64,000 nucleotides of DNA from contig NZ_CP008849.1 of the NCBI RefSeq assembly GCF_000730385.1, forward strand, positions 186,001 through 250,000. The letters run 5' to 3'. Below the pieces are notes generated by a model. It made no database searches. It was not told the DNA's origin and saw only the letters and a program-made list of their open reading frames with translations. This document shows positions 53,894 through 63,448 of the stretch, piece after piece; position 1 is the first letter of the stretch, and each line of letters opens with the position of its first letter. The stretch comes from Alteromonas australica. Its GTDB lineage: Bacteria > Pseudomonadota > Gammaproteobacteria > Enterobacterales > Alteromonadaceae. The translations under genes and the position numbers were made by a program.

Positions 53894-53989
53894 TGGACAC
53901 CCACAGGTTTCATGCGTGGGACACACACATCATCACTGTTAGGAAATCATGGACAGTCACAACATTCAAACGTCGTAGTGGACAGCCAC
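53894..53989. repeat. REP-like repeat cluster, three TGGACA(C/G)(C/T)CAC copies
   Basis: Three copies of an 11-nt core on the plus strand: TGGACACCCAC (53894-53904), TGGACAGTCAC (53950-53960) and TGGACAGCCAC (53979-53989). The first is followed by a partial inverted arm GTGGGACAC (53916-53924), so it can fold. They fill much of the 387-nt gap (53796-54182) before rraA; the rest of that gap is A+T-rich promoter-like DNA without a gene. The same core recurs near 60.65 kb and 63.43 kb around a RAYT transposase gene. Confidence 0.7.
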
Positions 53990-54182
53990 CAATACAATAA
54001 TGCTAGCAATTTATGTGCTAATTATCCGATTACGGCACGAAATTAAGGGGAAGGTGAGGTCGATGTGAAAAATACCCTCGAATTTTATCAAGATGCGTAA
54101 TCTAACGTTTTCAAGCGTTAAATTAATGCTATGCTAAACCCATCAAGTTATTCACTTCACTTAATTAAAGTAAGGCAGAGCA

Positions 54183-54668
54183 ATGGATTACAACACTTCT
54201 GAATTATGCGATTTATTTGCCGATAGTGTCGATGTTGTCGACCCCATATTTGTAAGCTATGGCGGCCGCTACTCTTTCGGTGGTGAAGTAACCACGATTA
54301 AGTGCTTTGAAGACAGAGGGTTAATTGATAGGGTGCTGGCCCAGCCTGGTGCAGGAAAAGTATTACTGATTGACGGAGGAGGCTCGGTTCGTCGCGCGCT
54401 TATTGATGCAACGTCTGCGCAAATTGCCATAGATAACGACTGGGAAGGGATAGTGTGTTACGGCAGTGTGCGTGAAGTTGATACCTTAGCTGATTTAGAC
54501 ATTGGTGTTCTCGCAGTAGCGGCCATTCCGGTTAATGCTGAAAGTGAAAGTATTGGTGATGTTGATGTACCCGTGAACTTTGGCGGGGTAACTTTTTTAC
54601 CAGAAGATCACCTATACGCCGATAGTACTGGTGTCATTTTGTCGCCAGAACCGCTTGATTTAGAATGA
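54183..54668 (+). CDS. rraA: RraA-family protein (RNase E activity regulator)
   Basis: 161 residues, the enteric RraA length, forming a trimeric ring by family knowledge that binds and inhibits RNase E. Characteristic phrases: FSGGRYSFGG-like VSYGGRYSFGGEVTTIKCFEDRGLI, GKVLLIDGGGSVRRALIDA, GIVCYGSVREVDTL, and PVNFGGVTFLPEDHLYADSTGVI. Cytoplasmic. RraA-like folds also occur in aldolases, but length and motifs fit RraA. It has its own promoter region with REP-like repeats upstream and a strong terminator downstream. Confidence 0.92.
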   Translation: MDYNTSELCDLFADSVDVVDPIFVSYGGRYSFGGEVTTIKCFEDRGLIDRVLAQPGAGKVLLIDGGGSVRRALIDATSAQIAIDNDWEGIVCYGSVREVDTLADLDIGVLAVAAIPVNAESESIGDVDVPVNFGGVTFLPEDHLYADSTGVILSPEPLDLE

Positions 54669-54690
54669 AATAGTATCTTTATATGAAGAA

Positions 54691-54713
54691 AGGAGGCCAA
54701 GGCCTCCTTTTTT
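54691..54713. terminator. Terminator after rraA
   Basis: AGGAGGCC (54691-54698) and GGCCTCCT (54701-54708) form a near-perfect G/C hairpin. A T-run follows to 54713. It also reaches the stop of the convergent nuclease gene, so it may serve both, though the T-run favours rraA. Confidence 0.88.
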
Positions 54714-55530
54714 ATGATGCGTTATTGTGTTCGCTATCAAATATATGATTTAAATACATGGCAATACGAATCCCCGCCATTTGCAAACGTTCGGTGGCAA
54801 TAGGCAAATGATTGTAAAGATAATCGTAGGATAGTTCGGCCCCCTCTTCAGGGTATATGGTGTCGCGAATTTCAATGCTTTCTTGAATCCATACGAATGG
54901 GTCGACAGACGCCCACTGACGAATATTTTGTGGTGTAATTTGACGATTCAGTTGCTCTGTCCACTCTGTATAAGACATTTTGCGCTGATCTAGCATTTCG
55001 GAGTCCCATACGCGGTGCAAGTTGGAATCGTGCCAGAAGAATTGCAATTTTTCGTCGTTGCCGCCTCTGTCAGTACCATTCCCCGCATGTAAAGGTTGGT
55101 GCAAATCACCAATAATGTGCACGATAAAACGCAATGCCAAACGCTTTTCCTCTGCGGTAGAGGCATCATTCAAAAGCACACTTTTAAAATGTGAGAGCGC
55201 TGTAACCGCATCGCCTTCATCTGGGGCACCTACGTTAACGTAGTTTTGACCCTCAGGTACGGTGACATAATGCCATGGAGAAGCCGTTTTGCGCCAAAAC
55301 GTACTTGGGTCTGAACGCATTTCATCGGCATACGTTGACGCTTGAGCTAAAGAACCACGAGGGAACAGGTCTTTTAGGGCGGCTTGAGAGAGCGGGCTTA
55401 AATATTTTTCCGCAATAGCGCCTGTCACACGGTGACCGGTTTGACCCCAGCCCAGTGCGGGTGAACTTGAAAGTAGAGTGGTAGACACGAAAAGCGTCAC
55501 AGCGAAAAAAGTTCTTTCGAACGCTGACAT
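54712..55530 (-). CDS. S1/P1-family nuclease
   Basis: Exported zinc nuclease, 272 residues. The signal peptide ends near SSSPALG, leaving the mature N-terminal Trp (WGQTGHRVTGAIAEKYL) whose backbone and side residues bind zinc. Other trinuclear zinc-site residues are in SPWHYVTVP, FIVHIIGDLHQPLHAG and RGGND. It should cut single-stranded DNA and RNA, or 3'-nucleotides, in the periplasm or medium, for nutrient recovery. It lies 8 nt after ubiX and could be co-transcribed. Confidence 0.92.
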   Translation of the reverse strand: MSAFERTFFAVTLFVSTTLLSSSPALGWGQTGHRVTGAIAEKYLSPLSQAALKDLFPRGSLAQASTYADEMRSDPSTFWRKTASPWHYVTVPEGQNYVNVGAPDEGDAVTALSHFKSVLLNDASTAEEKRLALRFIVHIIGDLHQPLHAGNGTDRGGNDEKLQFFWHDSNLHRVWDSEMLDQRKMSYTEWTEQLNRQITPQNIRQWASVDPFVWIQESIEIRDTIYPEEGAELSYDYLYNHLPIATERLQMAGIRIAMYLNHIFDSEHNNAS

Positions 55531-55538
55531 AAATGTTC

Positions 55539-61760: not shown

Positions 61761-61787
61761 GAAAATATTGCAGCAAAGATGATTTTT

Positions 61788-61819
61788 CCAACAGCATGAG
61801 TGCTGTTGGGAATGTTTTT
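61788..61819 (+). terminator. Terminator after the RAYT gene
   Basis: A perfect 9-bp stem CCAACAGCA (61788-61796) / TGCTGTTGG (61801-61809) with a 4-nt loop. GAATGTTTTTC follows, with five T residues. It separates the transposase gene from the Hsp70-like gene. Confidence 0.8.
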
Positions 61820-61879
61820 CTTTGGGTGTGCTAGTTTTTTCATTTACAATCCACAAAAAGCGCTAATTTATGAACGGTT

Positions 61880-63400
61880 ATGACTGCGATTGGGATTGAT
61901 TACGGCACATCAAATTCTGAAGTTGTGTATTTTGATGGTGCTACCCATCAGCATATAAAACTTGACCCACAAGACAAGAAGGGCAACAAAATACGCTCTT
62001 CAGTATTCATCTATTTCGATGATGAACTCCCCCCGCCGCCTGACGCTATGGTTGAAGCAAAAGTGGCTCAGCTCAAACGTGCGCTGAACGAAAAAATTGA
62101 TAAGGCGAAGCAAGGGTACTATTCGGCGAGCGATCCTAAAGAGCAGTCATTATACAGCGATAGAATAGACTCCCTGCGGGCCGAATTTCACAACAAGCCT
62201 TCATTGCAGCGCAAAGCCATTCAACAACTAATGCATGCCATGTCGTTAGACGAAATTCCACTATTGCGGTTAGTAGAATATGGTAAGTTTGCGTTTGGTG
62301 AAGAAGGCTTTCGTCGCTTTTTAAAAACGCCCAATAAAGGTCGTCTTATCTATTCACCAAAAAACTTTCTAGGGGCGTCGCTAGACAGCGATCAAAAACA
62401 CGCTTTTATTGGCATTATTGCGAAGCAACTTGCCTATTTTAAACGTTGTGCAGAAGAGCAGCTTAATCGCCATGTTTCTACAGCAGTGATAGGTAGACCC
62501 GTTAAGTTTCATGGTACACGGGGAGAAGAAGGCAACGCTCAGGCCATTCAGATAATGACAGAAGCAGCTAGGTTAGCAGGTTTTTCGGGAGTTAATTTTC
62601 TCGATGAGCCAATAGCTGCTGCGTACAAAATAGAGCGTACACTTCCAAAAGACACGACTACGCTTATTGTAGATATTGGCGGCGGTACAACAGATATTTG
62701 TTGTATTAAATTATCTCCCAAGCGAACAAATCAGCTAGATCGTAGCCAAGACTTATTGTCTGTTACTGGCCGTAGACTAGGTGGAATGGATTGCGACAAG
62801 GGCTTACTGCTGAAAGCGGTAGCCCCTGACATGGGCATGGGGCTTAAAATGATAAACGGCTTACCTGTTCCCCCGACGTATTTTTCTGATATGTGCGCGG
62901 TTGATAACATACCGGCGCTTACACGATTCTTCTCAGACGACTATGGGCTGGATATTTCACAGACCATGTCTGTTACAAGAGAGCCTGCTCAGCTTGAGCG
63001 TCTCTTGACTGTTCAAGAAGAAAAACTATCTGCTCGCGTAGTCAACTCTGTGCGTATGGCGAAGGAATTGCTATCGTCAAAGTCAACGATCACCCTGCCA
63101 TTACACTACATAGAAGAAGGTTTTGATGTCAATATTAGCCAGGAAATGCTGAAAATAGCGCTAAAACCTTGGTTAGACAAAGTTAAAAAACTTGTGGTTG
63201 AGTGTTTAGATAAAAGCCCTGAAAAGCCAGAGATGGTTATGATTACAGGTGGGATGAGCTTGTCACCAATTGTTGTGGATGCGTTATACGAAGCATTATT
63301 AACGGGCCTGCCTAGGCTAGAGAATGACGCCTTTAACTCTGTTTGTGAAGGGTTAGCGATACAAGCTGCAAAGCACGAATTTGACAGCCACACTGGCTAA
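61880..63400 (+). CDS. yegD: YegD-like Hsp70-family protein
   Basis: Divergent Hsp70 ATPase of the YegD kind, 506 residues, a little longer than the ~450 of E. coli. Actin-fold ATP motifs: phosphate 1 IGIDYGTSNSEV (4-15), NFLDEPIAAAYKIE, phosphate 2 LIVDIGGGTTDI, and the adenosine site MITGGMSLSPIV. It lacks the substrate-binding and lid domains of DnaK. An inserted helical stretch (about residues 60-95, KVAQLKRALNEKIDKAKQGYYSASDPKEQ) is charged and coiled-coil-like. Role unknown. It converges with uvrA across a REP-like hairpin. The start choice ATG 61880 gives the standard ATPase N-terminus. Confidence 0.85.
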   Translation: MTAIGIDYGTSNSEVVYFDGATHQHIKLDPQDKKGNKIRSSVFIYFDDELPPPPDAMVEAKVAQLKRALNEKIDKAKQGYYSASDPKEQSLYSDRIDSLRAEFHNKPSLQRKAIQQLMHAMSLDEIPLLRLVEYGKFAFGEEGFRRFLKTPNKGRLIYSPKNFLGASLDSDQKHAFIGIIAKQLAYFKRCAEEQLNRHVSTAVIGRPVKFHGTRGEEGNAQAIQIMTEAARLAGFSGVNFLDEPIAAAYKIERTLPKDTTTLIVDIGGGTTDICCIKLSPKRTNQLDRSQDLLSVTGRRLGGMDCDKGLLLKAVAPDMGMGLKMINGLPVPPTYFSDMCAVDNIPALTRFFSDDYGLDISQTMSVTREPAQLERLLTVQEEKLSARVVNSVRMAKELLSSKSTITLPLHYIEEGFDVNISQEMLKIALKPWLDKVKKLVVECLDKSPEKPEMVMITGGMSLSPIVVDALYEALLTGLPRLENDAFNSVCEGLAIQAAKHEFDSHTG

Positions 63401-63419
63401 TAGTACCTGCAGATAAAAA

Positions 63420-63448
63420 GACACCCACAGTCAAAGTGTGGGTGTCCA
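63420..63448. repeat. REP-like hairpin between yegD and uvrA
   Basis: A perfect 10-bp stem GACACCCACA (63420-63429) / TGTGGGTGTC (63437-63446) with a 7-nt loop. The right arm plus two bases reads TGGACACCCAC on the minus strand, identical to the first repeat core at 53894. Placed between two convergent stops, it may also end transcription or block 3' decay. Confidence 0.8.

What the first reader, a model, noticed from the sequence alone, without database searches (positions are those of the whole stretch)
53894..63448. A REP-like repeat family next to its likely RAYT transposase
An 11-nt core, TGGACA(C/G)(C/T)CAC, occurs in three intergenic regions: three copies at 53894-53989, a folded unit at 60627-60703, and a perfect 10-bp hairpin at 63420-63448. 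Between the last two lies a full RAYT gene with HUH and Tyr motifs. RAYTs are known to act on REP palindromes with a short conserved head sequence. The tetra- or pentanucleotide head and the strand bias seen here would define the target of this enzyme. The core differs from the REP sequences I know from enterics and Pseudomonas.
Basis: partly seen in the sequence, partly recalled or inferred. Interest (0 to 1): 0.72.

Follow-up and report, generated by a model that had tools for sequence, protein, structure and literature searches.

The report
Repeat arrays flanking a tyrosine transposase
In an Alteromonas-like bacterium and its relatives, most examined genes of one transposase family have inward-pointing copies of a ten-letter DNA repeat on both sides, so this enzyme family, reported to have no partner repeat, likely has one that it is predicted to cut and spread to nearby DNA.

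Summary
In detail: TGGACANYCAC occurs 6 times in the window (0.19 expected) and 53 times in the genome, against 25 for the reversed pattern. The REP reading is only half right. The protein is a subclass 2.3 Y1/HUH transposase, a subclass reported to lack REP-like flanks (PMC6006769). Around 142 such gene rows (141 genes), a looser core, GACANNCA, lies within 500 bp of 138, and at least three copies flank 110; the reversed control gives 59 and 5. Cores point inward (536 of 620). Twenty-one subclass 2.1-like Y1 genes of the same genus lack the arrays. Isolated cores do not fold, so these are terminal-inverted-repeat-like arrays, not REPs. The central NN follows the transposase tree. Own cores cluster within 10 kb of the genes (29 of 53, 1.6 expected). 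Six genomes of 58 without a match show no core enrichment, but neither do 33 of the 52 with one. Best reading: cognate ends and solo copies of a locally spreading single-strand transposition system. Cleavage, binding and movement are inferred.

The parts
60834..61760 (+). Y1/HUH tyrosine transposase gene of subclass 2.3 (308 aa from ATG; 318 aa from TTG at 60804). HUH = N70-H71-T72-H73, predicted catalytic Y186 in YVDLNP, numbering from the ATG.
60627..60637 (+). left array core 1, TGGACACTCAC
60644..60654 (+). left array core 2, variant TTGACATCCAC
60666..60676 (+). left array core 3, variant TGGACAGCCAA
60695..60704 (-). left array core 4, inverted (AGACACTCAC), pairs with core 1 in the folded unit
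53894..53904 (+). solo array core TGGACACCCAC (6.9 kb from the gene)
53919..53928 (+). solo array variant core GGACACACAC
53950..53960 (+). solo array core TGGACAGTCAC
53979..53989 (+). solo array core TGGACAGCCAC
63420..63446 (.). hairpin of two inverted cores, GACACCCACA-gtcaaag-TGTGGGTGTC (strict match 63438-63448, minus strand)

Best explanation
The repeats are a family of ten-letter sites (core GACANNCA, here mostly TGGACANYCAC) that flank subclass 2.3 HUH/tyrosine transposase genes as inward-pointing arrays, in most examined genes on both sides, and they are likely the DNA sites that this enzyme recognises, cuts and rejoins in single-stranded DNA. Shown here: the arrays flank this subclass and are nearly absent around 21 subclass 2.1-like Y1 genes of the same genus; their orientation is inverted between the two sides; near-identical gene copies at different places share in most pairs only about 90 nt upstream, up to the innermost left core, and in three copy pairs the shared block ends at, or about 10 nt past, a right-hand core; the two variable core letters follow the transposase tree; solo copies concentrate within 10 kb of the genes. 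Inferred: the enzyme uses the cores as ends, occasionally moves its gene with them, and more often leaves or copies core-bearing end fragments into nearby intergenic DNA exposed at the same replication fork; tandem amplification then lengthens the arrays. Each paralogue would read its own NN letters, so several such systems can coexist in one genome.
Against: No cleavage, binding or movement was observed. Of the 52 genus genomes with a match, 33 do not reach twice the control count of the strict core (19 of 58 do), so the strict core alone does not track the gene everywhere. The window's own gene has a left array but no core within 500 bp downstream and may be a decayed element. In many near-identical copy pairs the shared block ends near the stop codon, not at a right core. 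The own paralogue at 2718658 sits in GG-type arrays while its sister (the window gene, CT) and next relatives (CC) do not, and 40 of 116 genes differ in NN from their nearest neighbour. Two long G042 arrays (L241, L243) lie about 45 and 58 kb from the nearest listed gene (the gene list there is incomplete). Core conservation in syntenic pairs was not clearly above a reversed-pattern control (0.738 against 0.586 flank; control 0.688 against 0.589). Isolated cores do not fold, whereas the known relatives bind hairpins. Curated cut-offs of PF01797 and NF047646 are not reached.
Confidence: 0.7

Rival explanations
1. A classical REP/REPIN family: palindromic units with a GT[AG]G head, mobilised by their RAYT.
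For: The transposase model matches E. coli TnpAREP best. A minority of core pairs form hairpins with a fixed 18-nt offset (8 of the 16 inverted neighbour pairs within 30 nt); 63420-63446 is a hairpin of this kind. On the minus strand the core starts with GTGG or GTGA. All cores taken together, pairs included, fold somewhat better than shuffles (-0.99 +/- 0.15 kcal/mol), but so do core-free flank pieces (-0.74 +/- 0.16).
Against: Isolated cores have no fold beyond shuffles (-0.1 +/- 0.18). Neighbours within 30 nt are 120 same-strand against 16 opposite. The GTGG letters lie in the loop-side part of the stem in the window's hairpin, not at its foot. The published automatic and manual searches found no REP-like sequences for this subclass (PMC6006769).
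Confidence: 0.1
2. Operator sites: the cores bind the transposase or a host regulator to control the transposase promoter, and copies elsewhere are by-products.
For: The left core sits at a steady distance from the start (median -92, interquartile -129 to -88). An exact TTGACA lies within 22 nt inside the innermost left core in 9 of 126 genes and in 0 of 126 on the outer side; with one mismatch allowed it is 23 against 17, so the link is weak.
Against: It does not explain inverted cores downstream of the stop codon (105 of 141 genes), solo arrays of 11 and 15 same-strand cores or clustering in neighbouring intergenic regions. Autoregulation could coexist with the end function.
Confidence: 0.12
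3. The arrays are older host features that act as landing pads; the transposase gene merely inserts into them.
For: G013's transposase (GG clade, support 0.999) and the window's sit in the same thioesterase-Hsp70 gap although they are from different clades, so the gap was entered at least twice.
Against: The 12 relatives with the compact gap carry no core there. The arrays at that gap differ in NN type with the resident gene, and the 6 genomes with no match are not enriched for the strict core.
Confidence: 0.06
4. Chance or composition artefact.
For: About half of the 53 strict matches equal the reversed-pattern number (25), so many single distant matches are probably chance.
Confidence: 0.02

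Closest known systems
TnpA_Y1 subclass 2.3 (Quentin et al. 2018, PMC6006769; abstract and sections 8, 11, 12, 15 part 1, 31, 38 read)
   Same: YVDLNP motif, long HuH-Y spacing, about 316-325 aa, several divergent copies per genome, gammaproteobacterial.
   Different: That study reports no REP-like flanking structures for the subclass; here 138 of 142 gene rows have GACANNCA within 500 bp and 97 of 141 genes have inward cores on both sides. The genus carries NHTH (92 of 105) where the paper gives NHYH; the class-wide set has NHYH in 23 of 31.
TIRtron / TIRYT (Di Nocera et al. 2013, PMC3733652; section 16 and passages read)
   Same: Tyrosine transposase gene between inverted repeats that have dispersed relatives, single, dimeric or grouped.
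   Different: Some of their repeats share GGGGWSAS, which is not enriched here (18 sites against 21 reversed). The 2018 paper places their 26 examples in subclasses 2.1, 2.2 and 2.5. Here the ends are arrays of short direct repeats with gene-specific NN.
REPtron / REP / REPIN (PMC8266576 abstract and sections 20, 28, 29 read; Nunvar et al. 2010, PMC2817692, passages only)
   Same: HUH/Y1 enzyme, cognate intergenic repeats that co-vary with the enzyme. Nunvar et al. already saw repeats scattered between genes neighbouring a Stenotrophomonas transposase, so local scatter is not new in itself.
   Different: REPs are hairpins with a 5' GTAG or GTGG guide; these units do not fold on their own and lie mostly as direct repeats.
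IS200/IS605 (IS608, ISDra2)
   Different: Published IS ends are subterminal hairpins; here the ends are inverted arrays. No tnpB search was made.

Membership tests
TnpA_Y1 subclass 2.3 | Y motif YVDLNP | tested here: met
   101 of 105 own and genus proteins, 31 of 31 of the class-wide scan
TnpA_Y1 subclass 2.3 | HuH motif NHYH | tested here: inconclusive
   23 of 31 in the class-wide set; the genus, window protein included, has NHTH (92 of 105), T not being hydrophobic
TnpA_Y1 subclass 2.3 | HuH-Y spacing about 110 and length about 325 aa | tested here: met
   median 113 and 316 over 136 proteins
TnpA_Y1 subclass 2.3 | several divergent copies per genome | tested here: met
   7 genes; the six others are 49-74% identical to the window protein
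TnpA_Y1 subclass 2.3 | catalytic HUH fold | tested here: met
REP / REPIN | unit is a stem-loop | tested here: not met
   190 isolated cores no better than shuffles; only a minority of pairs form hairpins
REP / REPIN | GT[AG]G at the foot of the hairpin | tested here: not met
   read directly in the window only: in 63420-63446 the GTGG letters are in the loop-side part of the stem
REP / REPIN | dispersed copies linked to a transposase gene | tested here: met
   clusters near the genes
TIRtron / TIRYT | gene flanked by inverted repeats | tested here: met
   97 of 141 genes, reversed pattern 3; the window gene itself has the left side only
TIRtron / TIRYT | GGGGWSAS motif (shared by some TIRs) | tested here: not met
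   18 sites within 500 bp of 141 genes against 21 for the reversed motif
IS200/IS605 insertion sequence | single-strand transposition without target duplication | not testable with these tools
   no population or in vitro data; exact target of a recent insertion not resolved
IS200/IS605 insertion sequence | near-identical copies within genomes | tested here: met
   G012 has four copies 96-99% identical over about 1 kb with different flanks; the own genome's copies are divergent

The most novel reading that the evidence does not exclude
A new architecture of HUH single-strand mobile element: the ends are arrays of non-palindromic ten-letter repeats read without a hairpin, two variable letters set which paralogue acts on them, and copies spread mainly within about 10 kb of the gene, so that several insulated systems coexist in one genome.
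Probability: 0.4. Interest if true: 0.78.

Novelty: new variant of a known kind. Interest (0 to 1): 0.62.

Why it matters
The reference classification of these enzymes lists subclass 2.3 as having no partner repeats, which left its role open. A defined candidate sequence, with a two-letter specificity position and many natural enzyme-site pairs, makes binding, cleavage and specificity directly testable in vitro. It would also show that a Y1 enzyme can work on sites that do not fold alone, and it gives a natural set for asking how transposase specificity changes.

Tried and rejected
Chance was rejected by shuffles, reversed and scrambled patterns, distal flanks and other Y1 genes. Classical REP: rejected by folding and geometry. 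A replication-strand bias seemed visible in the G042 listing, but that listing appears cut separately by strand (a minus-strand core seen in L137 is missing from it), so no claim is made. Core conservation in syntenic arrays is inconclusive because a reversed-pattern control behaves similarly. Element boundaries from copy pairs are clear on the left (about -90 in most) and only sometimes on the right. A promoter box beside the left core is a weak signal. The 2.0-2.3 kb insert in the same gap of G001, G020 and G037 is not a transposase; two ORFs over 150 codons were seen in each. Rfam gives only 3 weak matches below gathering scores over 53700-63500. A genome-contig scan gave one relative. The sequence search of solved structures gave one weak hit, 2f4f, E 0.38.

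Papers: text searches for six core spellings found 323 papers; the 40 titles shown are unrelated, the other 283 were not seen. Searches for RAYT with REPIN, TIRYT, RAYT with Alteromonas, REP-associated tyrosine transposase, TnpAREP, RAYT with tyrosine transposase (2017 on), Alteromonas with palindromic repeat and transposase, and TnpAY1 with IS200 and REP (2018 on) showed no listed title or abstract start describing a repeat for this subclass. Absence from print is claimed for no more than these listings and the sections read.

Rows dropped: 3 of 145 tblastn gene hits spanning under 250 residues; 6 of 142 with stops or a bad frame; 19 of 136 with fewer than two sites in the specificity test; one gene entered twice (L032 and L045), removed but present in 43, 44 and 48. 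One hundred regions were fetched from the genus matches listed, whose list was itself cut; best matches were preferred. Three of 24 loci had no ORF with both motifs.

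Full report
What is there. The window (bases 186001-250000 of a 4,308,833-base single-contig genome) holds six matches to TGGACANYCAC; 100 shuffles gave a mean of 0.19. Two of the regions also hold variant cores. Folded as single-stranded DNA, the 63420-63446 hairpin is strong (z -5.7), the unit beside the gene is moderate (z -2.5) and the 53894-53989 cluster is at chance (z +0.24). Genome-wide there are 53 strict matches, against 25 for the pattern read backwards.

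The association. I took flanks of 142 gene rows (141 genes, 71 genomes or contigs). An unbiased comparison of 7-mers near (within 400 bp) and far (1.1-1.5 kb) put GACACCC, ACACCCA, AGACACC and ACTGTCC first. The looser core GACANNCA has 620 sites within 500 bp, at least one in 138 rows and at least three in 110; the reversed pattern has 83 sites, 59 and 5 rows. Density falls from 4.41 per kb near the gene to 1.21 at 1.0-1.5 kb and 0.36 inside it. Upstream the cores run 286 forward to 44 reverse, downstream 40 to 250. In the 31 genes of the class-wide scan (one of them, L209, from the same genus) the ratios are 40 to 1 and 3 to 38, often with single cores near -85 and +200. Inward cores on both sides occur in 97 of 141 genes, and in 3 for the reversed pattern. 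Twenty-one YIELNP (subclass 2.1-like) Y1 genes of the same genus have 4 sites in 21 kb (reversed pattern 5) and none has three, so proximity to any Y1 gene is not enough.

Not a REP. Single cores with no neighbour within 70 nt fold no better than their shuffles (190 cores, -0.1 +/- 0.18 kcal/mol). Neighbouring cores within 30 nt are same-strand 120 times and opposite-strand 16 times. Eight of those 16 share an exact 18-nt offset, close to the hairpin form seen at 63420. The general element is thus an inverted pair of direct-repeat arrays. This resembles the TIRtrons of Di Nocera et al. (PMC3733652, section 16 and passages read), but their motif GGGGWSAS is not enriched here (18 sites against 21 reversed).

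Specificity. For each gene with at least two sites I took the commonest NN of GACANNCA. It equals that of the nearest protein neighbour with unrelated flanks in 76 of 116 genes; 5000 shuffles gave 37.9 on average and 58 at most. Paralogues within one genome that share NN are more alike (0.702, 58 pairs) than those that differ (0.58, 82 pairs), and 0 of 2000 within-genome shuffles reached this. On a tree the label changes 21 times against 48.8 shuffled, minimum 43 of 1000. A counter-example: the own paralogue at 2718658 is GG-type, while its sister, the window gene, is CT-type and the next relatives CC-type.

Local spread and empty sites. Of the 53 own cores, 29 lie within 10 kb of one of seven genes, 1.6 expected (17 of 40 merged loci, 1.2 expected). 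The remaining 24 are about what the reversed pattern gives for the whole genome (25). In G042, 18 of 39 clusters of listed forward cores lie within 10 kb of one of 15 listed genes, 4.1 expected; two solo arrays there hold 11 and 15 same-strand cores (L240, L241), the second about 45 kb from the nearest listed gene. At the window's locus, 20 relatives were fetched. Seventeen have both genes of the thioesterase-Hsp70 gap: 12 have 182-199 nt with no transposase and no core, 3 have another insert, and 2 (G013, G029) have a transposase with 5 and 3 cores. The region before rraA was found in 13 relatives and only G029 has cores (4). The region after the Hsp70 gene was found in 19; G013 has 4 cores, G029 has 5, G043 one, the others none. 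G013's gene is from a different clade (support 0.999) and its cores there are mostly of matching GACAG[GT]CA types, so the gap was entered at least twice; whether the window's and G029's genes share one insertion is unresolved (support 0.24). Local scatter around a classical transposase was already noted by Nunvar et al. 2010 (PMC2817692, passages).

Presence against absence. Over 58 genus genomes strict-core counts correlate with the number of transposase matches (Spearman 0.53; reversed pattern -0.44). The six genomes without a match average 12.2 cores and 19.3 control matches; the six with ten or more average 116.3 and 11.5. But only 19 of the 58 reach twice their control count, so 33 of 52 genomes with a match do not. 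The strict core fits only some of the NN types, and the match counts include a few more distant Y1 genes. The genomes are related, so these are not independent trials.

Mechanism. Near-identical copies with different flanks share about 90 nt upstream in most pairs, up to the innermost left core. In L108/L110, L127/L133 and the two L137 copies the right edge is at, or about 10 nt past, a right core; in many others it is near the stop codon. With the fold of single-strand HUH enzymes and the catalytic residues intact, the simplest reading is that cores are the enzyme's sites and element ends, and that most traffic is local, leaving core-bearing fragments. Cleavage, strand choice and target are inferred. 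The window's own gene has no core within 500 bp downstream and may be partly decayed.

Novelty. The architecture belongs to the known TIRtron/REPtron kind, but the repeat family, its link to subclass 2.3, the array form and the two-letter specificity position were not seen in the listings and sections I could search. Bertels et al. 2017 (recalled, not held) could not be read.

Noticed in passing
window 53890-53998: The solo array is bracketed by an inverted repeat TTGTATTGG ... CCAATACAA whose inner letters overlap or adjoin the first and last cores.
   Followed up: no
window 60517-61879 and homologues in L219, L227, L230: The thioesterase-Hsp70 gap is a variable site: three relatives (G001, G020, G037) carry a 2.0-2.3 kb insert there encoding what look like a MarR-type regulator and an S41-type peptidase (names by eye from the translation, no family search) instead of a transposase.
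   Followed up: partly
L142, L149 (G010) flanks: Array units are tandem duplications that include host flanking DNA, with breaks about 10 nt 3' of the core on the top strand (by eye).
   Followed up: partly
left cores of class-wide loci, e.g. L190, L191, L202, L214, L217: A TTGACA box follows the left core by a few nt in some genes: 9 of 126 exact, 0 of 126 on the outer side, but 23 against 17 with one mismatch.
   Followed up: partly
window 6836-7121 (-): Rfam 5_ureB_sRNA match of 100 bits, above its gathering score.
   Followed up: no
window 61880-63400: Hsp70/MreB-like protein gene next to the transposase; present in relatives without the transposase there, so not part of the element.
   Followed up: partly
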